The notes beneath the pieces are model-generated. The model ran no database searches, was not told the origin of the DNA, and saw nothing but the letters and a program-made list of their open reading frames with translations. Position numbers and translations under genes: made by a program. From the NCBI RefSeq assembly GCF_000725345.1, contig NZ_CP008852.1, forward strand, positions 2,137,693 to 2,201,692: a stretch of 64,000 nt of DNA, in the 5' to 3' direction. This document shows, in pieces, positions 32,641 through 49,387 of this stretch. Every line of letters starts with the position of its first letter. The first letter of the stretch is position 1. This stretch comes from Pelosinus sp. UFO1. Lineage in GTDB: Bacteria > Bacillota > Negativicutes > DSM-13327.

Positions 32641-32712
32641 GCTATTTAAGTGTCACTTATCGTTGAAGAGAATAGACTGTAGTGTGATAGCAGAATGTAT
32701 GGGGGGATGTTT

Positions 32713-33756
32713 ATGGTAAAGGTTGTAGTAATTGGAGGAGGATGGGCAGGATGCGCTGCAGCATTGTCAGCAGCTAAAACTGGAGCCCATGTGCTTTTAT
32801 TGGAGCGTACTGATTTGCTATTGGGCACTGGTCTAGTAGGAGGTATATTCCGTAATAATGGAAGATATACAGCAGCAGAAGAAGCCATTGCTATGGGGGG
32901 CGGAGATGTATTTGTTGCTATGGATGCTAATACTAAACATAAAGGTTTCTCATTCCCAGGACATAAACATGCTTCTACATATGACGTAACAACAATGGAA
33001 CCGTTGGTTAAAAAAATATTACAAAACTATGGTATTGAAATTAGGACTTATACTCGAGTAGTTGATGTAGTAAAACTTGGCAAGAAGATTCAGGCCTTAG
33101 TTGTAAATGACGGAGCCGAAATAGACGGTGATGTATTTATTGATGCAACTGGCACGGCGGGATCTATGGGGAATTGTCTTAAATATGGTAACGGGTGCGC
33201 CATGTGTGTATTACGTTGTCCCGCATTTGGCCCACGAGTAAGCGTTACAGCGAAAGCAGAAGTAAAAGAAATAATGGGAAGAAAAGCGGATGGATCCTTT
33301 GGCGCAATGAGTGGGTCTTGTAAGCTAGGTAAAGATTCAATTAATAAGGAAATCAGAGACCAATTAGATAGGGAAGGCGTCGTAGTATTACCACTACCAG
33401 AAAAACTGCAAAAAGGCAGTTCGTTAGGTAAAAAAGCATGCACTCAATATGCCTTACCTGAATATGCAGCTAACCTTGTGTTGCTAGATACTGGCCATGT
33501 AAAACTAATGACACCCTTCTTTTCCATAGAAGATTTACGAAAGGTTCCTGGTTTGGAACAAGCTCGTTATGAAGATCCTTATGCAGGGAGTGTAGGTAAC
33601 TCGGTAAGGTATTTGGGAATGGCACCTTGCTCAAGTTCTTTAAAGGTTGAAGGTGTGGAAAATCTGTTTTGTTGTGGTGAAAAATCAGCAATTCTTGTAG
33701 GTCATACGGAAGCTATCGTCACTGGTTTACTAGCAGGTAATAATGCTGTAGCATAG
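32713..33756 (+). CDS. FAD-dependent oxidoreductase, 3'-truncated by the mobile element
   Basis: The protein opens with the FAD-binding dinucleotide fold VVVIGGGWAGCAAALSAAK and ends with LFCCGEKSAILVGHTEAIVT followed by GLLAGNNAV, the GidA/TrmFO-like FAD-site region. It has a Cys-rich patch (GNGCAMCVLRCPAFGP). The frame then stops after one foreign residue (Ala) at the insertion junction. The missing 80 C-terminal residues are encoded at 49133-49376; joined at GCTGT the gene would give 426 residues. ATG 32713 follows GGGGGG by six bases. The downstream partner is the flavin/iron-sulfur reductase at 49388. Its reaction is not known. The truncated product probably cannot fold or couple normally. 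Confidence 0.85.
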   Translation: MVKVVVIGGGWAGCAAALSAAKTGAHVLLLERTDLLLGTGLVGGIFRNNGRYTAAEEAIAMGGGDVFVAMDANTKHKGFSFPGHKHASTYDVTTMEPLVKKILQNYGIEIRTYTRVVDVVKLGKKIQALVVNDGAEIDGDVFIDATGTAGSMGNCLKYGNGCAMCVLRCPAFGPRVSVTAKAEVKEIMGRKADGSFGAMSGSCKLGKDSINKEIRDQLDREGVVVLPLPEKLQKGSSLGKKACTQYALPEYAANLVLLDTGHVKLMTPFFSIEDLRKVPGLEQARYEDPYAGSVGNSVRYLGMAPCSSSLKVEGVENLFCCGEKSAILVGHTEAIVTGLLAGNNAVA

Positions 33757-33777
33757 TACACAAAAAGCGATGCCTCT
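33745..33777. repeat. Left attachment junction (attL)
   Basis: GCTGT core at 33745-33749; host codons for GLLAGNNAV to the left and element sequence AGCATAGTACACA to the right. With the right junction it rebuilds an attP with dyad symmetry about the central GT (9 of 13 positions). Confidence 0.7.
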
Positions 33778-35237
33778 CAAAATTTAATAAAGATATTATT
33801 TGCCTTATCTATCGTGACGCTATGGACAAAGCTCAATACTATTTGTCGTCGTTCTTCTTTGGTTGCACCGTCCCAAATCATATCAAAGTTCGTTAATATA
33901 TTAAATATCTCTTTTGCTGTAGCAACTTGGCTGGTATTTACTTTCATGATTTTATCGTATTCAAGTATTTTACCTTCGAGATAAGCACGGTGCTCATGCA
34001 AATCTTTAATTCGATTAACTAGGTCATCTGCTGAAATAATTTCTTTTTCAAAGGCATCATACCATTTATCTAATTTTTTCTTAATTCCATCTAATTCTCT
34101 TACTGCCTGCGTTTGGGATTTTGTAATATGTTCATTTGCAGTATCTTTTAGAAGTTTATCCATAGTATTTTTTAAAATTATTGGATCCTGTTTATACTCA
34201 TGTAAAGATTTAATGACAGCCATTTCGATCTCAGACGCACGCTTATGTCCACATTTGCAATTCACATCACGAATCATAGATTTTGAAGATCGATCTTGTG
34301 AGTAACAAGTATAATAGTCAACTTTCTCCACTGGATTCCTAGGATTCTTCCATACTTTTTTCATTCGCATCCTAGCACCACACTCACCACAATATATGAT
34401 TCCTGTTAAAAGACCTGACTCGGCGTTTGGGGTGTAACTACTTCTTATTGCTTTAATTTTTTGTGCAGTATAAAATTCTTCCTCTTGGATGATAGCAGGG
34501 TGTTCCCCTTTATTCATATTTCCTTTATGCTCCACAAATCCTGCGTAGAATGCATTTCTAAGGATAGCCCTTATAGTACCTCTTGACCACTGGTTTGCGG
34601 TGCTTGGTGTTGGAGTATGACGTTCATTAAGAGCATCAGCAATATGTTGATACCCTTTGCCACTATTAAGATATTCTGAAAAGATAAAGCGAACTGTTTC
34701 AGCCTCCATTTCATTGATTTCTAATTTTCGAGTGTCGCGATTAAATTTGTACCCTAGCGCAATAGGGCCTCCCATAAAACGACCTTGCTTTGCAGCTTCC
34801 TTTTTCCCCTCGCGTACACGCTCTACGATTGTTTCTCTTTCCAATTGAGCAAAAACGGCCATCATACCAATAGCAGCCTTACCAAATGGGGTAGTAGTAT
34901 CAAATGGTTCAGATACAGATTTAAATCCAACAAAGGAAGGTTCAAAAACGTCTTCAAGTAGATATAAAACATCTTTTTGCCGACGCGATAGCCGGTCAAG
35001 CTTGATAACTATAACGGCTCCGATTTTTTGTTCTTTTACATCCGCTATCAATCGTTGCATTGCGGGCCTATTAAGATTTTTGCCACTGTACCCATCATCA
35101 ATATATAAGTCATATAAATTCCAGCCCTGTGATTGGCAGTAAGCGATGATACGCGATTTCTGTGATGGAAGTGAGACTCCATGTTCTGCTTGTTCATCGG
35201 TACTGACACGCAGATATCCAGCTGCTGAGATTATCAT
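33777..35237 (-). CDS. Large serine recombinase (site-specific integrase)
   Basis: The 486-residue protein has the resolvase catalytic domain (residues about 5-150) with nucleophile S12 in AAGYLRVSTDEQ and the arginine cluster KLDRLSRRQKDVLYLL, the recombinase domain (about 160-265, GGPIALGYKF and AILRNAFYAGFVEHKG), a zinc ribbon (CGECGARMRM ... CKCGHKR, about 280-340) and a coiled coil plus tail. All parts of a functional large serine integrase are present. ATG 35237 follows AGGAGG by five bases. Its 3' end abuts attL, the usual layout. It presumably integrated the 15.4-kb element and could excise it with a directionality factor. Not a transposon resolvase, which would be about 200 residues. 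Confidence 0.93.
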   Translation of the reverse strand: MIISAAGYLRVSTDEQAEHGVSLPSQKSRIIAYCQSQGWNLYDLYIDDGYSGKNLNRPAMQRLIADVKEQKIGAVIVIKLDRLSRRQKDVLYLLEDVFEPSFVGFKSVSEPFDTTTPFGKAAIGMMAVFAQLERETIVERVREGKKEAAKQGRFMGGPIALGYKFNRDTRKLEINEMEAETVRFIFSEYLNSGKGYQHIADALNERHTPTPSTANQWSRGTIRAILRNAFYAGFVEHKGNMNKGEHPAIIQEEEFYTAQKIKAIRSSYTPNAESGLLTGIIYCGECGARMRMKKVWKNPRNPVEKVDYYTCYSQDRSSKSMIRDVNCKCGHKRASEIEMAVIKSLHEYKQDPIILKNTMDKLLKDTANEHITKSQTQAVRELDGIKKKLDKWYDAFEKEIISADDLVNRIKDLHEHRAYLEGKILEYDKIMKVNTSQVATAKEIFNILTNFDMIWDGATKEERRQIVLSFVHSVTIDKANNIFIKF

Positions 35238-35248
35238 AATATCCTCCT

Positions 35249-35618
35249 AGATATATATGTTGGATACAGATCATTTCTGTTTTAGTAGTAGTGAGCTTTA
35301 ATAGATATAGTCTTCATTCCTTTAGTTAATACCTATAAGGTACGCAATTAAATATATTCTTCATATCATTCATTAATTAAAAAAACTTTCTAAGTTTAAT
35401 AGATTTGATTCTATTTTCGCAGGAAGTGATATTTTATTTACAGATGATACAAACGTTTAAGATAAATGAGAACTATATCACTTAACAGCGAGAAATAATC
35501 TTGTGCATGAATTGTAAATCCTAATCTATCTCTAGAATGTTATTGTTATAATTTTCACAAAAACAGTTATCTTTGTTTTTTAGTGACATATATATATGGA
35601 TATAAGGAAAATTAATAG
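35249..35618. other. Non-coding stretch between recombinase and alcohol dehydrogenase genes
   Basis: About 370 bases, very AT-rich, with no reading frame that has a ribosome site. It must contain the divergent promoters of the recombinase and dehydrogenase genes; a TATAAT at about 35544 lacks a good -35. Nothing else was recognised. Confidence 0.5.
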
Positions 35619-35634
35619 AAAGGTGGGAATGTAT

Positions 35635-36834
35635 ATGTGGGAAAGACAAGTTGATTTGGAACGAATTGTGGAAATTCGGACTAAGACTATAGTGTATTTT
35701 GGTGTGGGCGCGATTACTAAGATAACCGAAATTGCGATCATTTTAGCTAAACAGGGGATTAATAAGGTTCTCGTAGTTACTGGTAAGGGGTCACATATCA
35801 AGTCTGGTGCTTGGGTACATGTGGAACAGGCCTTTTCTTTTGCTGGTATCGCACCAGTATTATACAGTAAGATCACTCCCAATCCGACGGTTGATCAAGT
35901 TGATGAAGCAACACAGGTAGCAATGGAGTTTGGAGCACAAGCTGTTATTGCTATTGGTGGTGGCAGCCCGATTGATGCAGGTAAGAGTGTGGCTGTTTTA
36001 TTAGCTAACCAAGGTAAAACAGCACGTGAACTGTACGAATTTGCTTTTGTACCTGAAAAAGCAGTTCCGATTATCACCATTAATTTAACCCACGGAACAG
36101 GGACTGAGGCTGATCGTTTTGCAGTTGTCAGTATACCTGAGAAGGAATATAAGCCGGCTATTGCCTATGACTGCTTGTATCCTATGTACTCTATCGATGA
36201 TCCAGCCCTCATGACTACTTTGCCAGCTGATCAGACAGCCTATGTATCAATTGATGCTATCAATCATGTTGTCGAGGCGGCTACCACAAAATTGGGCAAC
36301 CCTTTTGCCATCAGCTTAGCTCGAGAAACAATTCGCTTAGTTGCCCATTACCTTCCATTAGCTCAGCATAATCCGAAGGATCTGGAAGCCCGCTATTATT
36401 TGCTGTACGCTTCCATGATCGCTGGTGTTGCCTTCGATAATGGACTTTTACATTTTACGCATGCCATGGAACATCCTCTTAGTGGCATGAAACCAGATTT
36501 GGCCCATGGTTCAGGACTAGGAATTCTACTGCCAGCAGTAGTGAAACACATTTATCCAGCCAAGGGAGCTATTTTGGCAGATATCCTAGCACCTTTACTA
36601 CCTGGAATCAAAGGTACGCCAGAAGAAGCACATTCTGCTTACATCGGCTTAAAGCAATGGCTTAAGGCACTCGGCATAAAGGAAAACTTGCGTGAGGAAG
36701 GATTTGTAGATGGTGATGTGGCTCGTCTGACAGATTTAGCTTTTGAAACTCCTAGCTTGGGGTTACTACTCAGCATGGCACCAATTGAGGCCAGCCGGAA
36801 GACGGTTGCTGCTATTTATGCAGATTCTCTATAA
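35635..36834 (+). CDS. Iron-containing alcohol dehydrogenase
   Basis: A group III (Fe-type) NAD(P)-dependent alcohol dehydrogenase of 399 residues. The nucleotide-binding motif GGGSPIDAGKSVAVLLANQ and the metal-ligand region FTHAMEHPLSGMKPDLAHGS (histidines near residues 265-280) are clear, with TITLTHGTGTEADRF-like ITINLTHGTGTEADRFAVVS between. ATG 35635 is preceded by AAGGTGGG; earlier in-frame ATGs at 35596 and 35629 are too close to or before the ribosome site. It is within the mobile element, upstream of a Crp/Fnr remnant and the gcv operon. Substrate cannot be deduced; homologues act on butanol, ethanol, glycerol or 1,2-propanediol. Confidence 0.88.
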   Translation: MWERQVDLERIVEIRTKTIVYFGVGAITKITEIAIILAKQGINKVLVVTGKGSHIKSGAWVHVEQAFSFAGIAPVLYSKITPNPTVDQVDEATQVAMEFGAQAVIAIGGGSPIDAGKSVAVLLANQGKTARELYEFAFVPEKAVPIITINLTHGTGTEADRFAVVSIPEKEYKPAIAYDCLYPMYSIDDPALMTTLPADQTAYVSIDAINHVVEAATTKLGNPFAISLARETIRLVAHYLPLAQHNPKDLEARYYLLYASMIAGVAFDNGLLHFTHAMEHPLSGMKPDLAHGSGLGILLPAVVKHIYPAKGAILADILAPLLPGIKGTPEEAHSAYIGLKQWLKALGIKENLREEGFVDGDVARLTDLAFETPSLGLLLSMAPIEASRKTVAAIYADSL

Positions 36835-36835
36835 A

Positions 36836-36879
36836 AAAATGCCTCAAGGATTCTGGAGCGAATCCTTGTAGGCATTTTG
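36836..36879 (+). terminator. Intrinsic terminator of the alcohol dehydrogenase gene
   Basis: AAATGCCTCAAGGATTC pairs with GAATCCTTGTAGGCATTT (one bulge) around TGGAGC, followed by TTGT. Confidence 0.8.
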
Positions 36880-36899
36880 TATGTTTACTATTACGACTA

Positions 36900-37244
36900 T
36901 AGATAATGATAGTAAATTCTGCTGCTTCCTATTCAAATTATATTTATCAGATACCTTCAGCATATTATATTGAAGCGCTGGAAGATTCAGATGTATTAGT
37001 CATTATACAAATTATATGACTTATATTGATAGTGAGCCACTATTTTTGTCATTACAAGACGATACACAGAATACATTTATTATATAAAAGAAGAGAGAAG
37101 CTTACTTTAATATGATACTTAACAACGTTGCCGTGATATTATTGAGAACATTTAGATATCTATTCTAAAGTAAAACAAAAGCATGTTGCATCTTACTTAG
37201 GGGCTTCTCCTGAAACATTAAGCCTACTTAAGAAAAAATGGTAA
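36900..37244 (+). pseudogene. Crp/Fnr family regulator, degenerate remnant
   Basis: Three separated stretches in different frames match parts of a cyclic-nucleotide-domain regulator. First YIYQIPSAYYIEALEDSDVL (near 36940-37000), the end of the cNMP-binding domain; then YFNMILNNVA (near 37105-37135), the dimerisation helix; finally KQKHVASYLGASPETLSLLK at 37175-37235, the helix-turn-helix and C-terminus ending KKKW at the TAA 37242-37244. Frameshifts, stops and an internal deletion of the region before the helix-turn-helix make it non-functional. It may once have controlled the neighbouring alcohol dehydrogenase gene. Confidence 0.7.
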
Positions 37245-37351
37245 AAAGCACTTTTTATCATCATATCTATTAATAATTACATTTATTCGGAAAAATTCTA
37301 CAAGGATTCAAATGCGAATTTTTTGACAGGATAATCATCGATAAAATACGA

Positions 37352-37380
37352 TTGACACAAATTAACTAATTTGCTAGAAT
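37352..37380 (+). promoter_or_regulatory. Sigma-A promoter of the glycine riboswitch/gcv operon
   Basis: TTGACA, a 17-base spacer and TAGAAT; the start of transcription is expected near 37387, about 35 bases before the first aptamer. Confidence 0.85.
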
Positions 37381-37417
37381 ATTCGTAATAGTAAAATAAT
37401 GCATAGGGATGATGGTT

Positions 37418-37574
37418 ATAGGGAGAGATCGCTAAATGCGGCGCCGAAGGAGCAAGAACTTTGTCAAACTCTCAGGCAAAAAGGACCGTAACCGGACTAT
37501 ACTCTGGAGAGCACGCCTTGTGTAAAGGCGTCACCGATGGGGAGCCTATTTAGGCAAAACTCTCAGGTACAACA
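37418..37574 (+). ncRNA. Tandem glycine riboswitch (two aptamers)
   Basis: Aptamer 1 (about 37418-37497) has GGGAGAGATCGC, GCGCCGAAGGAGCAA and AAACTCTCAGGCAAAAGGAC-like conserved segments; aptamer 2 (about 37500-37574) has TCTGGAGAGC, the GCGTCACCGATGGGGAGCC segment and AAACTCTCAGGTACAACA. These are the hallmark GAGAG...CCGA(A/T)GG...CTCTCAGG blocks of gcvT-type glycine aptamers, joined by a short linker. The second aptamer runs directly into a terminator hairpin, so glycine binding is expected to allow readthrough into gcvT, as in known ON switches. Confidence 0.93.
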
Positions 37575-37626
37575 GACAGAGACAAAGGAGGATTCGTCCG
37601 CCTTTGTCTCTGTCTTTATTTTTTTT
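37574..37626 (+). terminator. Expression-platform terminator of the glycine riboswitch
   Basis: AGACAGAGACAAAGG pairs perfectly with CCTTTGTCTCTGTCT around an inner GGA/TCC stem with a TTCG tetraloop, followed by TTATTTTTTTT. It begins at the last bases of aptamer 2, giving the overlap needed for ligand control. Confidence 0.92.
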
Positions 37627-37654
37627 AAAACCAAGCAGAAAGGGGAGATGGATT

Positions 37655-38758
37655 ATGGCAGCATCAAAAAAGACGCCTCTATATGAGACACATTTAGAGT
37701 ACGGTGGAAAGATTGTTGAATTTGGAGGTTGGCTACTGCCAGTACAGTATACTGGGATTTTGGAGGAACATCGAGCAGTTAGAGAAAAGGCTGGCTTATT
37801 CGATGTTTCACATATGGGGGAGGTACTTGTCAAGGGGCCTGATGCCTTTGCATTTGTACAAAAATTAGTAACGAATGATGTATCTCGCCTTGCTAATCAT
37901 AAAATACAGTATACGCCCATGTGTTATCAGGATGGTGGTACTGTTGATGATTTGCTTATTTATAAGCAGGGTGAAGAAGAATATTTATTAGTTATTAATG
38001 CGGCTAATATTGAGAAAGATTGGCAGTGGATGCAGGAAAATAAGGGAGGCTTTCATACAGAATTAATCAATTTATCCGATCACACAGCGCAGCTAGCCTT
38101 GCAAGGTCCCCTAGCTCAGGCTATTCTTAGCCAATTGACAGATGTAGCTTTAGAAAATCTAGAGTATTATTGGTTTTTACCAAAAGTAATGGTGGCAGGC
38201 AAGGAGACGCTAGTATCTAGAACTGGTTATACTGGCGAAGATGGATTTGAAATTTACTGTCGTCCAGAGGATGCAGCATCATTGTGGAATTCTATAATGA
38301 CCGCAGGTAAGTCTTATGGGCTGTTACCTGCAGGTCTAGGCTGTAGAGATACTCTGCGTTTTGAAGCTTGCCTGCCACTCTATGGGCATGAATTATCCAA
38401 GGAGATTTCCCCCTTAGAAGCAGGGATTGGTATGTTTGTGAAGCTGGATAAAGGTGACTTTATTGGTTGTGCTGCTTTAGCAGAGCAAAAGAAAAATGGC
38501 GTAAAACGTAAAATTGTAGGTTTTGTTATAACTGGACGAGGGATTGCTCGGCCTGAATATCCTGTAATGGCACAAGGGCGATGCATTGGGACAGTAACCA
38601 CAGGAACCTATTCGCCAAGTTTGGATAAGAATATCGGTCTTGCTTTAGTAGAAGCCGAATTTGCTATAATTGGACAGCAATTTGATATAGAAATTCGTGG
38701 TAAGAAGGTAGCTGCTCAAGTAATTCCTAAACCATTTTATAGAAGAAAGGGGAAATAA
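37655..38758 (+). CDS. gcvT: Glycine cleavage system aminomethyltransferase (T protein)
   Basis: T protein transfers the methylene unit from aminomethyl-lipoyl-H protein to tetrahydrofolate, releasing ammonia. The 367-residue sequence begins KKTPLYETHLEYGGKIVEFG and shows HRAVREKAGLFDVSHMGEV, SRTGYTGEDGFEIYC and LGCRDTLRFEACLPLYGHEL, the folate-binding and family signatures. ATG 37655 follows AAAGGGGAG; the in-frame extension to 37604 lies in the riboswitch terminator. First gene of the operon gcvT-H-PA-PB-radical SAM-radical SAM-lipM-lpd. Base composition is somewhat richer in G+C than the flanking host genes. Confidence 0.95.
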   Translation: MAASKKTPLYETHLEYGGKIVEFGGWLLPVQYTGILEEHRAVREKAGLFDVSHMGEVLVKGPDAFAFVQKLVTNDVSRLANHKIQYTPMCYQDGGTVDDLLIYKQGEEEYLLVINAANIEKDWQWMQENKGGFHTELINLSDHTAQLALQGPLAQAILSQLTDVALENLEYYWFLPKVMVAGKETLVSRTGYTGEDGFEIYCRPEDAASLWNSIMTAGKSYGLLPAGLGCRDTLRFEACLPLYGHELSKEISPLEAGIGMFVKLDKGDFIGCAALAEQKKNGVKRKIVGFVITGRGIARPEYPVMAQGRCIGTVTTGTYSPSLDKNIGLALVEAEFAIIGQQFDIEIRGKKVAAQVIPKPFYRRKGK

Positions 38759-38760
38759 AA

Positions 38761-39150
38761 ATGAAAACTCCAGTAGAATTAAAGTATTCACGCGACCATG
38801 AATGGGTAAAAATTGAGGGAACTCGTGCAAGGGTGGGTATTACCGATTATGCTCAGTCTCAGCTTGGTGATGTAGTGTTTGTTGAGGTGCCTACAGTGGA
38901 CAGTAAGATAGCTGTAGGGGCGAGTTTTTCAGTGGTAGAGTCAGTGAAAGCAGTATCTGATATTTATGCACCTATTGGTGGTGTGATTGTGGAAGTAAAT
39001 GAGACGCTTACTGATGCACCAGAAATTATGAATGAAGATCCTTACGGCGAGGGTTGGCTGGTAGTCATCGAAATAGCCGATCCAGCAGACTTGAACCAAC
39101 TACTTAGTAGTGACGAGTATGAAAAATTAATAGCTGAGGGAGGTCATTAA
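38761..39150 (+). CDS. gcvH: Glycine cleavage system H protein
   Basis: The lipoyl carrier of the glycine cleavage system. In 129 residues it has the lipoyl domain with the modified lysine K63 in SVVESVKAVSDIYAP, typical EWVKIEGTRARVGITDYAQS start and the DPYGEGWLVVIE ending. Two bases after gcvT and one base before gcvPA. It is the likely substrate of the LipM-type transferase and radical SAM proteins encoded downstream in the same operon. Confidence 0.97.
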   Translation: MKTPVELKYSRDHEWVKIEGTRARVGITDYAQSQLGDVVFVEVPTVDSKIAVGASFSVVESVKAVSDIYAPIGGVIVEVNETLTDAPEIMNEDPYGEGWLVVIEIADPADLNQLLSSDEYEKLIAEGGH

Positions 39151-39151
39151 A

Positions 39152-40498
39152 ATGGGGTGGAGCTATTTACCTCATACTTACGAAGACCGACGTGCCATGC
39201 TTGCTGCCATTGGTGTAGAGAAAGTGGAAGATCTTTTTAATGATATTCCAACCCATCTATTATTTAATCGCCCACTACAGTTACCTGCTCCCATGTCGGA
39301 GCTGAATTTGATAAACTACCTTCATAAATTAGCTGGGGTAAATGCTAATCTCCAGGAATATACTTGTTTTCTAGGTGCAGGGGCTTATGATCACTACATA
39401 CCAAGTGTGATTGACCATGTAATAAGACGTTCTGAGTTTTATACAGCTTACACTCAATATCAGCCAGAGATCTCCCAAGGATACTTGCAAGCATTATGGG
39501 AATACCAAAGTATGATCTGCCAGTTAACAGGGATGGAAGTCTCCAATGCTTCCATGTATGACGGTGGTACCGCCTTAGCCGAGGCGGCAATGATGGCATG
39601 TAACGTCACAGATCGCAGTGAAGTGCTGGTAGTAAGCACAGTGCATCCTCATTACCGCACTGTGCTCACTACGTACGGAACGGATTGGGGATATAAAACA
39701 ACAGAGATTGGTTATACAGATGGTACTGTGAATAGGGAAGAACTCACACAATTAATGAGCAAAAATATCGCTGCTGTCATCATTCAATCACCTAATTTTT
39801 TCGGGTGTATTGAAGATATAAAAAAAATTGCTGACCTTACTCATGCAGAGGGAGCATTGCTTATCGTAGCTGGCGATCCTATTTCCTTAGGTATTTTAGA
39901 AGCACCTGGTGTACTTGGTGCCGATATCGTAGTTGGTGAAGGCCAGTCTATGGGATTAGCAACTGCTTTTGGTGGTCCTTATCTGGGTTTTTTTGCTGCT
40001 AATGAGAAACTGATGCGCAAGATGCCTGGTCGTATTGTGGGGCAGACCGTGGACCATGATGGTAATCGAGGATTCGTGTTAACTTTACAGGCAAGGGAAC
40101 AGCATATACGTAGGGAAAAGGCGACTTCAAATATCTGCTCCAATGAAGCTTTGTGCGCCTTAACAGCTGCTGTATATTTGAGTGCTGTTGGTAAAGAGGG
40201 TCTGCGTCAGGTAGCCGAATTATCACTGCAAAAATCTCACTACGCATGCCGTGAGCTGACAAAACTAGAAGGATTCACCTCTGTATTTGGGGCAAGTTAT
40301 TTTAAAGAATTTATTATACGTTGTCCAAAATCCATCGCTCAAATCAATGAAGAATTACTACAGGAAAAAATGATTGGTGGATTGGACCTTGGTATTTATT
40401 ATCCAGAACTTAAAAACTGCATGCTATTGTGTGTAACAGAAAACAGGACGCAGGACGATATTAACCAATTGGTAAAGAAATTGGGGGCGATAGTATGA
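39152..40498 (+). CDS. gcvPA: Glycine dehydrogenase (decarboxylating) subunit 1
   Basis: N-terminal half of the P protein, which with subunit 2 decarboxylates glycine via pyridoxal phosphate and loads the aminomethyl group onto GcvH. The 448-residue protein contains [20 protein letters not shown] and the [20 protein letters not shown] segment, [15 protein letters not shown], and [20 protein letters not shown], all conserved in split-type GcvPA. AGGGAGG precedes the ATG. Its stop overlaps the gcvPB start by four bases (ATGA). Confidence 0.96.
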
Positions 40499-41946
40499 GA
40501 AAAACTAAATCCTTGATTTTTGAAATAGGGAAAGAAGGTCGCTGTGCCATAGATATGTCAAAATGTGATGTACCAGAAGAAGCCATTACATCACTAATAC
40601 CCCGAGAATTCTTACGAAAAAATCCTGCGGCCCTGCCAGAAGTCAGTCAACTAGATTTAATGCGTCATTATACAGAACTGTCTGAACGGAATTTTGGTGT
40701 AGATTCAGGCTTTTATCCATTAGGTTCGTGCACCATGAAGTATAACCCAAAAGTGAATGAAGATATCGCCCGTTATCCTGGATTTGCTTTATTGCATCCT
40801 TTGCAGCAGCCTGAAACAGTGCAGGGCGCCTTAGAACTGTTATATAACATGGAACAGTATCTTGCTGAGATTGCAGGAATGGATGCTGTTACCATGCAGC
40901 CAGTTGCAGGTGCTCATGGTGAATTGACCGGATTAAAGCTGATTCGGGCCTATCATCGGCGCAATGGGGAAGCGCGAAACAAAGTTATCGTGCCTGACTC
41001 GGCTCATGGCACCAATCCTGCATCAGCTGCCGTATGTGGGATGGAAATCGTGGAAATAAAATCAAATGAAGATGGATCTATCAATTTAGAAGCACTCCGC
41101 AGAGCAGTAGGACCAGATACGGCTGCCCTCATGTTGACTAATCCAAGCACCTTGGGATTGTTCGAAACCAATATTCAAGAAATTGCTAGCATTGTCCATA
41201 ATGCGGGTGGACTGTTATATTATGATGGGGCTAATGCCAATGCCATTTTGGGGATTGTTAGGCCTGGAGATATGGGCTTTGATGTTGTCCATTTTAATCT
41301 TCATAAGACCTTCGGTACACCACATGGGGGTGGTGGTCCAGGCTCAGGACCTGTAGGTGTAAAGCGTAGCCTTGCCCCATTTTTACCTACCCCTGTGCTC
41401 ACTTTTGATGGAAGTAAATATGACCTAGATCATAATCGTCCACTGTCTATTGGCAAGGTACATTCTTTCTATGGTAATTTTGGGATTATTGTTCGTGCCT
41501 ACGCTTATATCCGTGCTTTAGGTCCAGATGGATTGCGCCAAGCCAGTCAAGATGCTGTAATGAATGCCAATTACTGTTTGACCCAGTTGCGGCAACAGTA
41601 CCATGCTCCTTTTACTCGTTTTTGTATGCATGAATGTATCTTAACATCCAAGGAACAAACTCAATATGGCATTCGAACGCTAGATATTGCCAAACGACTA
41701 CTGGATTATGGTTATCATCCACCCACCATATATTTCCCTATGATTGTAGAAGAAGCACTCATGATTGAACCAACGGATACAGAAAGCAAGGAAACCTTAG
41801 ATGGATTTATTGCTGTAATGAGAAAAATTGCGCAGGAGGCCAAAGAAGACCAGTCCCTAATTAAGAGTGCTCCCAGTACTACAGTAGTTGGGCGTTTAGA
41901 TGAAACTTTGGCCGCTCGCAAACCGGTTGTAAGATGGAAAGAATAA
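40495..41946 (+). CDS. gcvPB: Glycine dehydrogenase (decarboxylating) subunit 2
   Basis: C-terminal half of the P protein, carrying the pyridoxal-phosphate lysine K271 in [20 protein letters not shown]. Other family segments are [20 protein letters not shown] and [36 protein letters not shown], and [20 protein letters not shown]. The 483-residue length is normal for split-type GcvPB. Its end overlaps the next gene by 13 bases, indicating coupled translation with the radical SAM genes. Confidence 0.96.
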
Positions 41947-42734
41947 TTTGTTTTACATACCCCAAGAATACCAAATCCATCAGTGTCACAGAAAATCGCT
42001 GTGAACAAAATTGCGCTCATTGTGGTGGTCATTATCTTAAATACATGTTGCCAATCTCTGCTATGCAGGAGAGCAACGCCACTAGCTTTTTGATTAGCGG
42101 CGGCTGTAAAGCTGACGGGACCGTTCCTATTGGTCAGCATATTTCTGAACTGAGAGCCTTAAAACGAGGAAGGCTTTATAATCTTCATGTGGGATTGATA
42201 GATAAGGCTGAAATTGTAGAAATCGCTGAGATTGCTGACTGTATTTCTTTTGATTTTGTTGGTGATGATGAGACCATTCGTGAAGTATTTGGTATAGAAC
42301 GGACAGTAAGTGATTATATCCATTGTTATAAAGAATTACGTCAAAAAGTTAAGGTAATGCCCCATATTTGCATTGGTCTACATGCTGGCGAGATCAGAGG
42401 CGAATATCAAGCAGTGGAACTTTTGCAGGAGCTCGGTATGGATGCATTAACATTTATTATTTTTACACCAACTCGTGGGACTCGTTATGCAGATTGTTTG
42501 CCCCCAAAGATGGAGGAGGTAGTAAAACTATTAACGTGGGCTCGTCAGGTATGTCCCTCGATACCCATTCACTTAGGTTGTATGCGTCCTGGTGGACATT
42601 ATCGTAGTGAAATTGATCAATGGGCGGTTAAAATCGGTATGGATACGATTGTGAATCCTACGCCTAAAGCTGTGGCACTAGCAAAAAAATTAGGCATGTC
42701 TATCTTATGGACTGAGGAGTGCTGCGTACTATGA
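41934..42734 (+). CDS. Radical SAM protein, probable subunit of a LipS1/LipS2-type lipoyl synthase
   Basis: A 266-residue radical SAM protein with the 4Fe-4S/SAM motif C23-x3-C27-x2-C30 ([14 protein letters not shown]). Further residues of note are [20 protein letters not shown] and [14 protein letters not shown] in the barrel and a C-terminal ECCVL that could add cysteine ligands. It is too short for classical LipA and lacks LipA's N-terminal CxxxxCxxxxxC motif. The neighbours gcvH and lipM, and a second radical SAM gene overlapping it by four bases, match the known two-protein lipoyl synthase LipS1/LipS2 described in archaea and bacteria. I cannot tell which of the two this is. Function is by context and family, not proven. 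Confidence 0.75.
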
Positions 42735-43714
42735 ACCTTTGGAAACTTTCTGCAGGTACAGCCTGCGTAATTGGCAAAAAGAAAATTAAAGCGGATGTTC
42801 TGCCTACTACTGCTTATATTATGCTCGGGGAAAGGTGCAAAAACAACTGTCAATTTTGTGCCCAGTCACGGGACAGTGAGGCCAGGGTAAACCTGCTTTC
42901 CAGGGTAACTTGGCCAGTTTTTCCGAAGGAAGAAGCTGCCGCCGGAATCAGAGATACTTATAAAGCAGGAGCAATAAAGCGAGCTTGTTTGCAGGTGGTA
43001 TACAGCGCAAATAGTTGGGATACTACTGTTAATGCACTTGAATTATTACATGTTAGCAGTGCGGTTCCTATCTGCGTATCCAGTCATCTAGAAACAGTAA
43101 AGCAGGCGAGAGAACTTGTATCAAGAGGCGCAGAAAGGGTTTGTATTGCTCTAGATGCCGCTACGCCAGAGTTATACGAGAAGGTGAAAAACGGCCAGTG
43201 GGCTTCCAAGTGGAGCCTCTTACTAGAGTGCACACTGGCATTGCCGGGCCTTGTTACCACGCATCTCATCGTAGGATTAGGAGAAAGTGAAGAGGATATG
43301 GTGAGTCGAATGGCGGCCTGTATTGATAAAGGAATCAGAATTGGCTTATTTGCCTTTACGCCTATACGTGGGACCCCTTGGGCACATCTGAATGCGCCAA
43401 CAATTGCTCACTATCGGCGCATTCAGATTGCTCATCATCTGCTTAGGAACGGGTATAAGCAGGATATCATTGGCTACCAGGATGGGATCATTTCCGAGTT
43501 TAATGTACCCGAGGTTGAGTTATTAAGGATATTAGAAGACGGTCAAGCTTTTCAAACAAGTGGCTGTGATGATTGTAATCGTCCTTACTATAATGAGCGT
43601 CCTGGCGGTCTTATGTATAATTATCCTCGCCGCCTTACTTCTTTAGAAGTTACTAAGGCCATTGAGGAGTGCGAGATTGTTAGGGGAGAATATGATGAAC
43701 TGGCGACTAATTAA
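42731..43714 (+). CDS. Radical SAM protein, probable second subunit of a LipS1/LipS2-type lipoyl synthase
   Basis: A 327-residue biotin-synthase-like radical SAM protein with C36-x3-C40-x2-C43 (GERCKNNCQFCAQSRDS). The AQSR tail after the motif is BioB-like, but BioB's later conserved arginine/cysteine set is not obvious and no bio genes are near. Near the C-terminus is FQTSGCDDCNRPYYNERPGG, a second CxxC cluster that could bind an auxiliary iron-sulfur cluster, as expected for a sulfur-inserting enzyme. ATG 42731 overlaps the previous stop (ATGA). With the preceding gene it probably inserts two sulfurs into octanoyl-GcvH. Misannotation as biotin synthase would be easy. Confidence 0.75.
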   Translation: MNLWKLSAGTACVIGKKKIKADVLPTTAYIMLGERCKNNCQFCAQSRDSEARVNLLSRVTWPVFPKEEAAAGIRDTYKAGAIKRACLQVVYSANSWDTTVNALELLHVSSAVPICVSSHLETVKQARELVSRGAERVCIALDAATPELYEKVKNGQWASKWSLLLECTLALPGLVTTHLIVGLGESEEDMVSRMAACIDKGIRIGLFAFTPIRGTPWAHLNAPTIAHYRRIQIAHHLLRNGYKQDIIGYQDGIISEFNVPEVELLRILEDGQAFQTSGCDDCNRPYYNERPGGLMYNYPRRLTSLEVTKAIEECEIVRGEYDELATN

Positions 43715-44519
43715 CAGTGGGTTCGCTGATGCCGCAATAAATATGGCTGTTGATGAAGCCATATTACTGGCACATAGCGCTGGTAAAGTTCCGCCCACAC
43801 TCAGGTTCTATGGCTGGCAACCTGCAGCAGTTAGTCTAGGATATTTTCAAAGGGCGATGTCTGAAATTGATTTTGATCAATGTAAAGAGCGTAACATTGA
43901 CGTGGTACGCAGATTAACTGGAGGTAGAGCAGTTCTGCATGATGCCGAGCTCACCTATAGCATTGTGGTCCAGGAAGATGACCCTCTAATCCCTAAAACC
44001 ATTACGGCATCTTATCGCTATTTTAGCAACGGTTTATTAGTTGGTCTTAGGGAACTTGGTATACAGGCACAAATGACTGTGCCTGCAGCGGCTTATGGGC
44101 AGAGGAAAAAACAACCTGCGTCAGCGGCTTGCTTTGATGCTCCTTCTCATTATGAAGTTACAGTAGAAGGGCGAAAGCTGGCGGGAAGTGCCCAGGTACG
44201 TAAGAATGGCGTTATTTTACAGCATGGATCGTTACTATTGCGGTTTTTCGCTGAGCAGTTTGTAGAGTTACTGCGGCTGCCATCAGTAGAAAAACGCCAG
44301 CAGACAGCTCAAATGTTAAAGGGGAGAGCTACAGCGATTGAAGATGTGTTAGGAAGAACCGTAACGTGGCAAGAAGTGTATCATCCCATGCCCGAGGCTT
44401 TTGGGGCGGCTCTAGGCATCAAGCTAGTGAGTGGAGAACTTACAGAAGAAGAAAAGAGAGTAAGTAAAGAGTTGGCGTCAACAAAATATAGTCAGGACTT
44501 CTGGAAAATGCTTCGTTAG
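43692..44519 (+). CDS. lipM: Octanoyl-[GcvH]:protein octanoyltransferase, LipM type
   Basis: A lipoate/biotin-ligase-fold protein of 275 residues. It has the RRLTGGRAVLHDAELTYSIV segment common to LplA/LipM and, decisive for LipM, a cysteine C147 in SAACFDAPSHYEVTVEGRKL, the position of the catalytic cysteine of Firmicute LipM, which moves octanoyl groups from acyl carrier protein to GcvH. K162 follows in GRKLAGSAQ. ATG 43692 follows AGGGGAG; the gene overlaps the preceding one by 23 bases. A lipoate-ligase role (LplA) is the alternative, but no adenylation-specific motif was seen. Confidence 0.82.
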   Translation: MMNWRLINSGFADAAINMAVDEAILLAHSAGKVPPTLRFYGWQPAAVSLGYFQRAMSEIDFDQCKERNIDVVRRLTGGRAVLHDAELTYSIVVQEDDPLIPKTITASYRYFSNGLLVGLRELGIQAQMTVPAAAYGQRKKQPASAACFDAPSHYEVTVEGRKLAGSAQVRKNGVILQHGSLLLRFFAEQFVELLRLPSVEKRQQTAQMLKGRATAIEDVLGRTVTWQEVYHPMPEAFGAALGIKLVSGELTEEEKRVSKELASTKYSQDFWKMLR

Positions 44520-44550
44520 CTGTGGCAACAATACCAAGGGAGGGAAAAAA

Positions 44551-45957
44551 ATGGGTTATGATGTAGCGGTGATCGGCGGTGGTCCTGGAGGCTATGTTGC
44601 CGCCATACGAGCTGCCCAATTAGGCGGGAAAGTATTATTGGTAGAAAAGGATAAGATGGGTGGAGTCTGCTTAAACCGAGGTTGTATTCCTACCAAAACC
44701 TTATTAAAAAGCGCTGAAAAATGGCAAGAACTTAAGAATTGTCATGAATTTGGTCTGCAGGCTGAGAATATAGGATTTGATTTTGATGCCATTAGATTAC
44801 GTAAAAATCAAGTTGTTAACAAGCTGCGTGGCGGTATTGAACAGTTAATTAAAAGCAATGCTATAGAAACGATATATGGAGTAGGAGTACTAGAAGGGCC
44901 AAATCGGTTGATTATCACACAAGGAAAAGAGAAAATCAGTTATGAAGCAAAACATATTATTGTTGCTACAGGTTCTGAGCCCATGCATTTACCTATACCA
45001 GGCCAGGATTTGCCTAATGTCATTGACAGTAATCAGCTGCTAGAGATAGATCATGTACCACGCAGTATGATGGTCATTGGTGCAGGTGCGGTAGGGATTG
45101 AATTTGCCGCTATTTTTCAATCCTTTGGCTCAGATGTAACCGTAGTAGAAATGCTGCCGACAATTTTACCGAATATTGATAATGAAATAGTCAAACGTAT
45201 GGGGATCCTTTTACGCAAACAGGGCATAAAAATGCTGACAAATACCAAAGTAATTGGTATGGAGGAAAACAACGAAGGCGTTAAGGTTTCTCTTGATAAT
45301 GGTAAGTCAATTCAAGAACTCACTGTGGGAAAAGTATTAGTAGCAACTGGACGAAAACCTATAGTAGCTGGGCTAGGGCTTGAAGCTGCAGGTATTGATT
45401 ACAGCCAGGCTGGTATTAAGGTGAACAGCAAAATGGAGACCAATATACCTGGAATTTATGCTATCGGTGATGTCACTGGAGAGGAAATGTGGGCTCATGC
45501 CGCCTCGGCAGAGGGTATGGTTGCTGCAGAAAATGCATTGGGTGGTAATATTAGTATGGATTACAGTGCAGTGCCAGGTTGTATATTTACTACGCCAGAA
45601 TTAGCTATGGTTGGGCTTAATGAGAAGGAGGCTCAAGACACAAACATAGATATAAAAGTTAGTAAATTTAATTTTGCTAGTAATGGTAAGGCTGTTTCTA
45701 TGGGGGAAGCAGATGGTTTAGTCAAAATTATAGCCGATGCTAATAATGATAAAGTACTAGGCATGCATATCTTAGGAGCCCACGCTAGTGATCTAATTAT
45801 GGAAGGTGCAATCGCCATTCATAATGGCTTAACGGCAGATCAAATTGCCCACACAATTCACCCTCATCCTAGTTTATCTGAGACGGTAATGGAGAGCGCC
45901 CATGGAATTAATGGTGATATCATCCATCAGTTTATCTTGAAGGGACGACCTCTATGA
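44551..45957 (+). CDS. lpdA: Dihydrolipoyl dehydrogenase (L protein)
   Basis: Flavoprotein that reoxidises dihydrolipoyl-GcvH with NAD+. The 468-residue protein has FAD fold VAVIGGGPGGYVAAIRAAQL, redox disulfide C40/C45 in GGVCLNRGCIPTKTLLKSAE, NAD fold MVIGAGAVGIEFAAIF and the C-terminal catalytic histidine segment AHTIHPHPSLSETVMESAHG. AGGGAGGG precedes the ATG. It completes the four-component glycine cleavage system and ends the operon; a terminator lies 40 bases on. Confidence 0.96.
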   Translation: MGYDVAVIGGGPGGYVAAIRAAQLGGKVLLVEKDKMGGVCLNRGCIPTKTLLKSAEKWQELKNCHEFGLQAENIGFDFDAIRLRKNQVVNKLRGGIEQLIKSNAIETIYGVGVLEGPNRLIITQGKEKISYEAKHIIVATGSEPMHLPIPGQDLPNVIDSNQLLEIDHVPRSMMVIGAGAVGIEFAAIFQSFGSDVTVVEMLPTILPNIDNEIVKRMGILLRKQGIKMLTNTKVIGMEENNEGVKVSLDNGKSIQELTVGKVLVATGRKPIVAGLGLEAAGIDYSQAGIKVNSKMETNIPGIYAIGDVTGEEMWAHAASAEGMVAAENALGGNISMDYSAVPGCIFTTPELAMVGLNEKEAQDTNIDIKVSKFNFASNGKAVSMGEADGLVKIIADANNDKVLGMHILGAHASDLIMEGAIAIHNGLTADQIAHTIHPHPSLSETVMESAHGINGDIIHQFILKGRPL

Positions 45958-45994
45958 GTATTTTCTAATTTACTAAAGACATTTTTGAAAATAT

Positions 45995-46040
45995 AAGACA
46001 CAGCACGTCCATTTAGTAGTGGAATAGTGCTGTGTCTTTT
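45995..46040 (+). terminator. Intrinsic terminator of the gcv operon
   Basis: AAGACACAGCAC and GTGCTGTGTCTT form a perfect 12-bp stem around a 20-base loop, followed by TTCTGCG. Confidence 0.75.
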
Positions 46041-46114
46041 CTGCGTCATTATATTTTTTATCTATAGTAATGTTGGAAAGCAGTAGCTCATAAACTGTAC
46101 GGGAGGTGGTGAGG

Positions 46115-46261
46115 GTGGAAAAAACAGCATCCCCTAAGTATAACGTGACAGTAAGTTATAATCCTCATAAAGATTTAGATAAATTGGCTAGAGGATACGC
46201 AGTTATGATTAAAGTCGCCATTCGTATAATAAAGAAGAAGAAGATTTCTGAAGTAGAATGA
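46115..46261 (+). CDS. 48-residue basic protein, unknown
   Basis: A short reading frame with a strong ribosome site (GGGAGGTGGTGAGG) just before GTG 46115. The product is hydrophilic and basic: KYNVTVSYNPHKDLDKLARG followed by YAVMIKVAIRIIKKKKISEV. The lysine-rich helix could bind nucleic acid. It lies inside the mobile element after the gcv operon. I do not recognise it. Small basic element-encoded proteins sometimes are excision factors for serine integrases, so it is a candidate, without further support. Confidence 0.5.
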   Translation: MEKTASPKYNVTVSYNPHKDLDKLARGYAVMIKVAIRIIKKKKISEVE

Positions 46262-46336
46262 CTTCTCCGGCAAAAAAATGGACAGGATAGTGATTAATTT
46301 GTTGTAAGGATAAAATTTAAGTAGTTTAGATTTACT

Positions 46337-46438
46337 CTAATCTATTTTGAAAAAACCAAGTTTTGCATAAGTATACACCGCTCCAGCAAGCAATGCGCCT
46401 CCTACAAGTAGAGCAATCGTACATGACTGGTCTTGCAT
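46337..46438 (-). CDS. 33-residue hydrophobic protein, unknown
   Basis: A tiny minus-strand frame with GGAGGG eight bases before the ATG at 46438. The product has one membrane segment (TIALLVGGALLAGAVYTYAK) and a short charged tail. Ribosome site, length of the hydrophobic stretch and clean start/stop make it plausible as a single-pass microprotein. No family recognised. Confidence 0.4.
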   Translation of the reverse strand: MQDQSCTIALLVGGALLAGAVYTYAKLGFFKID

Positions 46439-46542
46439 ATAATAATCCCTCCGTTTTTCATAATAATTACTCTTTATAGTGTATTCATTATTCACTATAA
46501 TGTTAACTTTGATTTTTTAGATCTAGTTGAGAAAATAGAATA

Positions 46543-47025
46543 TTAGGACGGAATCGATGGTATTTTTAAAAAACATCTGTAATATAACCTAGACACATAT
46601 AAAGAAATGAATAAAGTTATCCATGAAATATAACCTGTCCAATTTATGTACTTAATGAGCTGTGTATAATTCTGAAATATAAGTTCTAGACCAGTGATAG
46701 CGAAGCAGGTACTAGCATAGTATATAAACTTAATTGATCTGCCTTTACTTTCTGGATAATAGATATTTTAAAAAACACAAATGACAGGGTAGGCTAAATA
46801 CTCAAAGGAAAAATTAGTTCTATTAACCTCAGAGAAAAAACGTATAGGGTATTCGATAAATCCCAAATCAACGGTAACTAACCCAAAAAACCAAGTGAAC
46901 GATTGCATAAATAAGAAACTGATTTGGGCATTGCGTTGTTTATATCTGGGAATAAATAGCACATAAGAAGCTATTGGGATAAACCACATTATATATAATA
47001 TAAATTTTTCAAGTGACATTATCAT
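46543..47025 (-). pseudogene. CBO0543-like integral membrane protein with one in-frame stop
   Basis: The frame from ATG 47025 reads EKFILYIMWFIPIASYVLFI, then a second hydrophobic segment, reaching YPVICVF and an in-frame TAA at 46768-46770. Without that stop the same frame continues for about 74 codons: NIYYPESKGRSIKFIYYAST, then TGLELIFQNYTQLIKYINWT and ISWITLFISLYVSRLYYR, to a TAA at 46543-46545. Total length about 160 codons with four or so membrane helices fits the CBO0543 family of small membrane proteins known from Bacilli and Clostridia. A single TTA-to-TAA change would explain the stop. The shortened 85-residue product could still be made; function unknown. Confidence 0.7.
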
Positions 47026-47155
47026 TCTCCTTACATCAATTTGTTATTGTTGTGATTCTCTAATCGAAAAATCTTATTATCAATTATTCCCATTAAAAAG
47101 GAATGTAAGATTTATTATTGAGCTTTCCCTCATTCATTATCTTGAAAAATGGAAA

Positions 47156-47180
47156 TAGATATGGCGTAATACCATATCTA
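47156..47180. repeat. Small perfect inverted repeat
   Basis: TAGATATGG and CCATATCTA flank CGTAATA. No T tract follows on the plus strand. It lies 39 bases before the possible small gene at 47219 and could be an operator. Confidence 0.35.
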
Positions 47181-47218
47181 GTATGTGTAGTATATGGGGA
47201 TAGTAGGAGTGATTTTAT

Positions 47219-47416
47219 ATGATGGTGGTTAATTCTGATAAAATGATAATATGGTGTTTGCATTCGCAAACCTACAATGTAGTAGTTTTTATTTATCTTA
47301 TCATTATTATCACCAATCAGTGGTCTATTTGCTCCATACAAGTAAATTTAAGATCATGGATGTGTAAGTATGTCATAATTTTTATATTGCCTTATAGCAG
47401 GAATTTTTTGGATTAG
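47219..47416 (+). CDS. Doubtful 65-residue membrane-type protein
   Basis: AGGAG lies nine bases before ATG 47219, and the product has one hydrophobic stretch (VVVFIYLIIIITNQW) and a second weaker one near the end (CKYVIIFILPYS). Codon use is irregular and no family is recognised; it could be a decayed gene or chance. The rest of the 47026-47635 gap (about 610 bases) holds only the small inverted repeat and AT-rich sequence. Confidence 0.25.
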   Translation: MMVVNSDKMIIWCLHSQTYNVVVFIYLIIIITNQWSICSIQVNLRSWMCKYVIIFILPYSRNFLD

Positions 47417-47635
47417 GTAGTAAGTTTTAAATATGATAGATTTACTTTCTATGGGTGATTTTCTAGAAATATAAGTAGAGACTTTATTGAAAGTTTAAAA
47501 AGAGTTACATATGTTATTGGTTATATATGGCCGATAAGAGGATAAAGATATTCTCTTAACAAAGTGATGACGGTAGAGCCTAAAAATTAGCTGATAAAAA
47601 AGAAGTAAACCGATAATTAAGATGGAGGAAGTTAT

Positions 47636-48241
47636 ATGATCTACAGAGTGGACATACTTTTATTTGATAAATTTGAAACATTAGATGTCTTTGGTCCTGT
47701 TGAAATACTTGGGGGTTTGCCTGATATTTTTAAATTGAATTTTGTATCTGCTAATGGAGGAATTGTTGAAAGCTCTCAAAATGTAAGAGTAGATACTAAT
47801 TTATATACAAGCGAAAAAGGTAAGGAAAAAATTTTTCTTGTGCCAGGTGGAATTGGAACAAGAGAAAATATTCAAGACAACAATTTTATAAATCTTATTA
47901 AAACTTTTTCTAGTCAATCAAAATATATACTTAGCATATGTACAGGTGCGGCTTTACTCGCTAAAACGGGAATGCTAAATGGAAAAAGAGCAACAACAAA
48001 TAAAAGAGCATTTAATTGGGTTACAGAGCAAGGGAAAGATGTTCTGTGGATAAAAGAAGCAAGATGGGTAAGGGATAATAATATATATACATCTTCAGGG
48101 GTATCGGCTGGAATAGATATGACATTAGGATTTATAGCAGACCTTTTGGGGAAGGAAAAAGCATTAGAGATTAGTCAAAGGATTGAATACTTCTGGAATG
48201 AAAATAGTAACTATGACCCGTTTTCCAAGATGTATGAATAA
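47636..48241 (+). CDS. DJ-1/PfpI family protein
   Basis: A 201-residue protein of the DJ-1/PfpI superfamily with the nucleophile elbow cysteine C102 in [20 protein letters not shown], followed by [13 protein letters not shown] and the early acidic residue in [13 protein letters not shown]. This subgroup resembles isonitrile hydratase InhA and the N-terminal part of GATase-like AraC regulators, but no helix-turn-helix is attached. AGGAAG precedes the ATG. It stands alone in the AT-rich right part of the mobile element. Substrate unknown; stress-related deglycase or isonitrile hydratase activity would be guesses. Confidence 0.85.
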
Positions 48242-48283
48242 TTGATTATATAAAATAAGGGAAGTCAAAGTGGCTCCCCAATT

Positions 48284-48424
48284 TTATAAATAGCAATATA
48301 TCGCAGACAAACAATATGCACACAGGGCCTGTTCATTGCCAAATTTACGTTGTACAAAACATTCTCTTTCTTGACCACAAGCATCACATTTCATATATTC
48401 AGACTCGCTACTTGCAGAAAGCAT
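48284..48424 (-). CDS. 46-residue zinc-ribbon microprotein
   Basis: Minus-strand frame with AAGGGG upstream of ATG 48424. The product carries two CxxC pairs 18 residues apart, YMKCDACGQERECF and ALCAYCLSAIYC, forming a compact zinc-ribbon pattern. The frame is open from start to stop with no other defect. Such microproteins are often adaptor or nucleic-acid-binding; the function is unknown. It lies within the mobile element. Confidence 0.5.
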   Translation of the reverse strand: MLSASSESEYMKCDACGQERECFVQRKFGNEQALCAYCLSAIYCYL

Positions 48425-49376: not shown

Positions 49377-49387
49377 GGAGGTATAAG

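What the first reader, a model, noticed from the sequence alone, without database searches (positions are those of the whole stretch)
33745..33777. Reconstructed attP shows dyad symmetry around a GT crossover dinucleotide
Combining the right-end element arm (TGTAAATTACGCT), the GT and the left-end element arm (AGCATAGTACACA) gives arms that match as inverted repeats at 9 of 13 positions centred on GT. Large serine integrases use a two-base crossover core flanked by imperfect inverted repeats. This independently supports the junction placement.
Basis: partly seen in the sequence, partly recalled or inferred. Interest (0 to 1): 0.6.

Follow-up and report, generated by a model that had tools for sequence, protein, structure and literature searches.

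The report
Integrase docking site splitting a gene
The short near-palindrome really is the docking site of a DNA-cutting integrase, an almost identical uncut copy sits in a phage, and relatives of this integrase repeatedly split spore-linked genes that would be whole again only if the inserted DNA left.

Summary
Joining the two element arms gives 9 of 13 inverted matches centred on GT. Best check: a phage contig (L096, integrase 72% identical) carries an uninterrupted attP matching the reconstruction at 43 of 50 positions, its dyad on the same GT. In 14 of 14 elements with both ends and a known gene register (the window's included) the symmetry peaks at the homologous dinucleotide: GT in six, AA in eight. 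The 15,383-bp element splits a FAD-oxidoreductase gene that is whole in six relatives. Both halves evolve under purifying selection (dN/dS 0.09 and 0.06). The gene tracks spoIVA in 380 genomes (49 and 51, 47 shared). The integrase's relatives also sit at cotJC-like, ylbJ-like and electron-transfer genes. I read it as a skin-like gene-intervening element of sporulation with metabolic cargo, including the only glycine cleavage system found in this genome. Excision is inferred, not shown.

The parts
33748..33749 (+). GT crossover dinucleotide in attL
   Evidence: Best dyad centre of 13 tested; identical in attL and attR in 6 of 6 elements of this target
33750..33773 (+). left-end element arm of attP (24 bp); outer motif GCGATGC at 33767-33773
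49107..49130 (+). right-end element arm of attP (24 bp); outer motif GATATGC read on the minus strand at 49107-49113
49131..49132 (+). GT crossover dinucleotide in attR
33750..49132 (.). integrated element, 15,383 bp (counting one GT)
   Evidence: absent from six relatives with an intact gene
33777..35237 (-). large serine recombinase (486 aa), its end 27 bp from the GT
   Evidence: PF00239, PF07508, PF13408; PHROG 95 integrase
32695..33756 (+). 5' half of the split FAD-dependent oxidoreductase gene (exact start uncertain)
   Evidence: open frame of 431 aa in relatives
49131..49376 (+). 3' half of the same gene
49364..50365 (+). dihydroorotate-dehydrogenase-like FAD/NAD-binding protein; the same gene is split by a related element in G311
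   Evidence: NF004470 at 294.8 bits, just under its cut-off of 313
37604..45957 (+). cargo: gcvT, gcvH, gcvPA, gcvPB, lipS1, lipS2, lipoate ligase, dihydrolipoyl dehydrogenase
   Evidence: NCBIfam equivalogs over cut-off for GcvPA, GcvPB, LipS1, LipS2 and dihydrolipoyl dehydrogenase; lipoate ligase by Pfam; same gene order in G003 and G007; gcvT and gcvH named from recall
35596..36834 (+). cargo: iron-containing alcohol dehydrogenase
   Evidence: PF00465
47636..48241 (+). cargo: DJ-1/PfpI family protein
   Evidence: PF01965

Best explanation
The site is the attP of a large serine integrase: 24 bp + GT + 24 bp. A dimer of the integrase binds each of attP and attB; the near-core inverted repeats are read by the recombinase domain and the outer GNNATGC by the zinc ribbon; both sites are cut at the GT and exchanged. 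The element so inserted splits a FAD-oxidoreductase gene whose neighbours look like dacB, spmA, spmB and rluB (names recalled). Most likely it is a gene-intervening element of the skin/SP-beta/gin kind: related to temperate phages, without recognisable phage genes besides the integrase, carrying metabolic cargo, and excised precisely in the sporulating mother cell, which restores the gene while the spore lineage keeps the insert. Shown here: the site, its centre, the uncut site in a phage, the empty site, in-frame restoration on joining, purifying selection on both halves, repeated use of spore-linked genes by relatives. Inferred: excision, its timing, the domain contacts and the role of the restored enzyme. 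My confidence is about 0.97 for the attP/GT part and about 0.65 for sporulation-linked excision.
For: Natural uncut attP in L096, 43 of 50 identical, dyad best at GT with 17 of 24. Symmetry peak at the homologous dinucleotide in 14 of 14 elements, plus the G311 element (20 of 26 after scanning 61 registers, next 12) and the free phage contig L025 (19 of 26). Shared tracts of seven cotJC-like elements intersect at exactly AA. Joining flanks gives one open frame through the gene in 10 of 10 elements tested. dN/dS of the split halves 0.093 and 0.063, of the integrase 0.11; five intact neighbours 0.00-0.13. FAD gene and SpoIVA: 49 and 51 of 380 genomes, 47 shared. Targets of relatives: cotJC-like, ylbJ-like, FAD and its neighbour gene. 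cotJC, dacB, spmA and spmB are listed as sigma-E core sporulation genes of B. subtilis in PMC3416734 (passages).
Against: No reads show an excised circle or healed gene. No excision factor was identified. A simple pattern search found no sigma-E- or sigma-K-like promoter before the FAD gene in own; sigma-E-like matches came in 2 of 28 upstream regions, sigma-K-like in 0 of 28. A terminator-like hairpin, not above chance, lies between the spmB-like gene and the FAD gene, so they may not share a transcript. The link of the FAD gene with spoIVA follows phylogeny, so the Fisher value does not prove function. Base -1 is identical in attL and attR in 6 of 6 FAD elements with three different bases, which a strict GT core does not require. 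Some dyads are weak: G318 13 of 24 (0.3% of random junctions), and L034 17 of 24 is reached by 0.7%. The attB dyad at GT is only 2 of 13.
Confidence: 0.75

Rival explanations
1. An ordinary integrative element whose insertion disrupted a dispensable gene; no programmed excision. The att site is the same but the split gene is dead.
For: No excision shown; the share by own and G008 may be one event inherited by both; apart from the integrase no phage function in the 10 element proteins scanned.
Against: Both halves are free of stops in G008 and show dN/dS 0.093 and 0.063 at dS 0.12 and 0.08. Relatives hit the same gene with other inserts (L024 3.6 kb; G318 about 2 kb; G308 about 43 kb) and no stop is reported in their 5' halves, while the 3' halves match over 82 of 82 residues in G318 and G308.
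Confidence: 0.25
2. The halves of the split gene work as two separate polypeptides, so selection is kept without excision. The right half has an in-frame ATG supplied by the element (49089).
For: ORF 49089-49376 starts in the element in frame with the 3' half.
Against: In L024 that frame has a stop seven codons before the junction and no start between (read by eye), so the arrangement is not general.
Confidence: 0.08
3. The crossover dinucleotide is one base to the left (TG), and the symmetry centre is offset.
For: Base -1 matches between attL and attR in 6 of 6 FAD elements although it varies (T, A, C).
Against: Dyad at TG is 6 of 13 and 8 of 24 in the window, against 9 and 16 at GT; in the natural attP 4 and 8 against 9 and 17. 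In the cotJC-like group base -1 differs in L026 and L029.
Confidence: 0.04

Closest known systems
skin elements in sigK (SpoIVCA of B. subtilis; CD1231 of C. difficile)
   Same: Large serine recombinase at one end, precise split of a gene, att sites with an outer short inverted repeat beyond a longer imperfect one (PMC5025042, passages).
   Different: Target is not sigK; cargo is metabolic; excision and an excision factor are not shown here.
gin element in gerE of B. cereus ATCC10987
   Same: Non-phage intervening element that splits a sporulation gene (PMC5595907, passages).
   Different: gin has three recombinase genes and a restriction system; this one has one recombinase and a glycine cleavage operon.
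SP-beta in spsM and phi3T in kamA
   Same: Phages whose integrase also serves gene restoration in sporulation (PMC6957869, passages; PMC4191935, search listing only). Here viral contigs L095 and L096 carry the closest integrases.
   Different: Other gene targets; the relation of the integrases was not compared here.
yin element in yabG of C. botulinum
   Same: Serine-recombinase element in a sporulation gene, excised as a circle (PMC10747680, passages).
   Different: Prophage-like; other target.
Listeria LI (A118-like) integrase attP
   Same: About 50-bp attP, outer zinc-ribbon motif near bp 16-24, central crossover dinucleotide (PMC3783163, passages).
   Different: Motif letters and target differ; the 5-bp inward shift in attB was not clearly seen here.

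Membership tests
large serine integrase att site | recombinase with Resolvase, Recombinase and zinc-ribbon domains | tested here: met
large serine integrase att site | attP about 50 bp with imperfect inverted arms around a dinucleotide | tested here: met
large serine integrase att site | outer half-site motif in both arms at the same distance | tested here: met
   GNNATGC at 18-24 in 11 of 12 half-sites of the FAD group
large serine integrase att site | outer motif shifted about 5 bp towards the centre in attB | tested here: inconclusive
   attB dyad at GT is weak, 2 of 13; a GATATGC lies at 14-20 on the right arm only (by eye)
large serine integrase att site | cleavage at the central dinucleotide | not testable with these tools
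   needs purified protein
sporulation gene-intervening element | precise split of one gene, restored in frame by joining | tested here: met
sporulation gene-intervening element | interrupted gene is a sporulation gene | tested here: inconclusive
   tracks spoIVA and lies beside spmA/spmB-like genes (names recalled), but no functional proof and no sigma-E/K promoter found
sporulation gene-intervening element | excision during sporulation with an excision factor | not testable with these tools
   no reads; no factor found
prophage | phage structural or replication genes in the element | tested here: not met
   10 element proteins scanned against PHROGs, integrase included; the other matches are to enzyme-like families of unknown or doubtful label. 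GcvH, GcvPA, LipS1 and the lipoate ligase were not in that scan.

The most novel reading that the evidence does not exclude
A group of large serine integrases, shared with temperate phages and found both in the window's class and in Pelotomaculum-, Desulfotomaculum- and Heliobacterium-type spore formers, lives by splitting several different spore-linked genes (a FAD oxidoreductase, its electron-transfer neighbour, cotJC-like, ylbJ-like). In this genus one such element carries the cell's only glycine cleavage and lipoylation operon, so mother-cell excision would both restore an enzyme and discard that operon from the dying cell only.
Probability: 0.4. Interest if true: 0.78.

Novelty: new variant of a known kind. 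Interest (0 to 1): 0.6.

Why it matters
It turns a by-eye palindrome into a tested att site with a natural uncut counterpart, gives matched attP and attB sequences for an integrase group, and points to genes that may undergo programmed DNA rearrangement in anaerobic spore formers. If excision is confirmed, the FAD oxidoreductase and its neighbour would be new sporulation genes, found through the elements that split them.

Tried and rejected
Considered and dropped: chance palindrome; another centre within GCTGT; tRNA target (no tRNA in the window); phage remnant in the element.

Led nowhere: promoter search before the FAD gene; a shared excision factor between L024 and the window element (beyond the integrase only short stretches of 11-22 residues matched); the 15-base att pattern in viral contigs gave 33 stretches, of which only the L096 contig resembled attP beyond the seed (43 of 50; next 30 of 50); a second viral scan with the L096 integrase returned only that contig. 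The order-level search repeated the family set of 10 genomes. The -1 base identity is unexplained. Targets of L050 (G290) and viral contig L098 were not found. In one search I translated the 3' half in a wrong frame; searches use the right one. In one search the alcohol dehydrogenase comparison failed (1239 bases against 1238 in G008); I did not follow it and dropped that row.

Papers: the listings named no paper on splitting of cotJC, ylbJ or this FAD gene, but searches list only 10-15 of 31 to 1,475 papers, and the library holds open-licence papers only. Nearest print found: a C. difficile prophage lies beside a CotJC-like gene (PMC11222575, one passage); it is not said to be split.

Full report
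The two quoted arms are real and each is found once without mismatch, at 49118-49130 and 33750-33762. Joined on GT they match as inverted repeats at 9 of 13 positions. The coordinates given cover only the left junction.

Is it more than chance? Random joins of window sequence reach 9 of 13 in 0.16% of trials, and 16 of 24, the score of the longer arms, in 0.006%. Of 13 centres tested GT is the best (9 of 13 and 16 of 24; next 6 and 11). The tract shared by the two junctions, GCTGT, would by itself leave four possible dinucleotides.

Empty sites. Of 10 genomes in the family, two carry the insert (own and G008), six have the gene in one open frame of 431 aa (G001, G003, G004, G006, G007, G009), one is cut at a contig end (G002) and one has only a 60% match (G005). 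In the six, the sequence passes from the left flank to the right flank at this point. G008 carries the same element at the same base, integrase 97% identical.

The uncut attP. A viral contig of 63 kb (L096) encodes an integrase 72% identical. Just after it lies an uninterrupted site that matches the reconstruction at 43 of 50 positions, with its own dyad best at GT: 9 of 13 and 17 of 24. The 18.8 kb read from this contig has an anti-repressor and a ParB-like protein and no real match to the FAD gene (one 40-residue match at E 0.009), so I read it as a free phage. L095, another viral contig, integrase 78% identical, ends in the same gene at the same place. L025, a contig filed under Pelotomaculum with amidase and tail-fibre genes, has an uncut site of the AA type.

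Homologues. Scanning named genomes for close peptide matches gave 14 loci: one at the same FAD gene (L024), twelve with a cotJC-like half (L026-L037; both halves seen in seven), one free (L025). Scanning 380 genomes of the class gave 15 matches in 12 genomes: seven at the FAD gene (own, G008, G078, G083, G294, G308, G318), five at cotJC-like halves (both halves seen only in G318), one in the neighbouring electron-transfer gene (G311), one at a ylbJ-like gene (one half seen), one unresolved. G078 looks like the L024 genome or a near copy. The names are weak in part: the intact own-genome copy of the cotJC-like protein matches NCBIfam manganese catalase below its cut-off (127.7 of 350 bits) and 'cotJC' is recalled; the ylbJ-like fragment scores 236.1 of 304.65 bits. 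Identity does not sort targets cleanly: G308 (49%) and G294 (43%) use the FAD gene too.

The rule. For the elements whose two ends I could read with a known gene register, 14 of 14 peak at one homologous dinucleotide among 21 centres: GT in six FAD elements, AA in eight cotJC-like ones. The weakest are G318 at the FAD gene (13 of 24) and G008 (14 of 24); random junctions reach the observed score in 0.3% for G318, 0.1% for G008, 0.7% for L034 and less for the rest. The G311 element, where I scanned 61 registers, gives 20 of 26 at AA, next 12. In seven cotJC-like elements the tracts shared by both junctions intersect at exactly AA. The outer motif GNNATGC lies at 18-24 in 11 of 12 FAD half-sites; GATATG or close forms start at 18 or 19 in the other group. 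This agrees with the outer zinc-ribbon motif of LI integrase attP (PMC3783163, passages) and the outer repeats of skin (PMC5025042, passages).

A caveat. Base -1 is the same in attL and attR in 6 of 6 FAD elements although it varies between them. It differs in L026 and L029 of the other group. I read GT as the core but cannot explain this.

What the split gene tells. Joining the flanks at the dinucleotide gives one open frame in 10 of 10 elements tried. Between own and G008, both of which carry the insert, dN/dS is 0.093 for the 5' half, 0.063 for the 3' half and 0.11 for the integrase; five intact neighbours give 0.00-0.13 and four cargo genes 0.10-0.18 (the alcohol dehydrogenase row failed and is left out). 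Only five substitutions fall in the 3' half, so that value is rough. A dead gene would not be expected to look so.

Sporulation link. In 380 genomes of the class the FAD gene is found in 49 at E 1e-150 and SpoIVA over cut-off in 51, 47 shared. FAD without SpoIVA: G084 and G090. SpoIVA without FAD: G094, G095, G315 and G294, and G294 does hold the 3' half. Fisher gives 8e-53, but relatedness inflates it. The neighbours look like dacB, spmA, spmB and rluB; Pfam supports a D-Ala-D-Ala carboxypeptidase for the first, NCBIfam gave no match over cut-off for the spmA- and spmB-like proteins, so those names are recalled. PMC3416734 lists cotJC, dacB, spmA and spmB among sigma-E core sporulation genes (passages). 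Known intervening elements split mother-cell genes almost always (PMC6957869, passages; also PMC5595907 and PMC10747680, passages). Against: no sigma-E- or sigma-K-like promoter found before the FAD gene in own, and sigma-E-like matches in only 2 of 28 upstream regions.

Cargo. The element carries a glycine cleavage operon with LipS1/LipS2. By GcvPB search at E 1e-60, 8 of 10 family genomes have one match each: own and G008 in the element, six others at 77-78% identity, in G003 and G004 about 0.9 Mb from the FAD gene, in the drafts on other contigs. The gene order is the same in the two I looked at, G003 and G007. The glyA-like gene next to it in G003 (name recalled) has its own-genome match in a different neighbourhood. 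Whether the operon moved or was acquired is open.

Tree. Own, G008, L095 and L096 form a fully supported group inside a FAD group of seven (97/91). L044 (G308) and L048 (G294) use the same gene but fall outside it in the drawn tree; deep forks are open and L048 is a long branch, so more than one origin of this target is likely but not shown.

Verdict. The larger point is a group of phage-related integrases that split spore-linked genes. Excision in sporulation is my inference.

Noticed in passing
window 37604-45957: A whole glycine cleavage system with LipS1/LipS2 lipoyl synthases rides on the element and is the only copy found in this genome by GcvPB search; six other genus members hold one outside the FAD gene.
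   Followed up: partly
window 32649-32712: A strongly conserved stretch upstream of the FAD gene (AGTGNCACTTA ... GAATAGACTGTAGTGTGATA) in nine aligned sequences from eight genomes; possibly a promoter of unknown type.
   Followed up: partly
G311 C2, about 105.6-156.0 kb: A related integrase with a roughly 50-kb element splits the electron-transfer gene next to the intact FAD gene.
   Followed up: partly
L024, about 7.86-11.5 kb: Only 3.6 kb: integrase plus small ORFs, a minimal element at the same base.
   Followed up: partly
G304 FAD gene (L089): Reported with one internal TAG.
   Followed up: no
window 35596-36834: The alcohol dehydrogenase gene differs in length by one base in G008 as located by the script; frameshift or locating error.
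   Followed up: no
PMC11222575: A C. difficile prophage lies beside a CotJC-like gene (one passage); worth checking whether it splits or ends in it.
   Followed up: no
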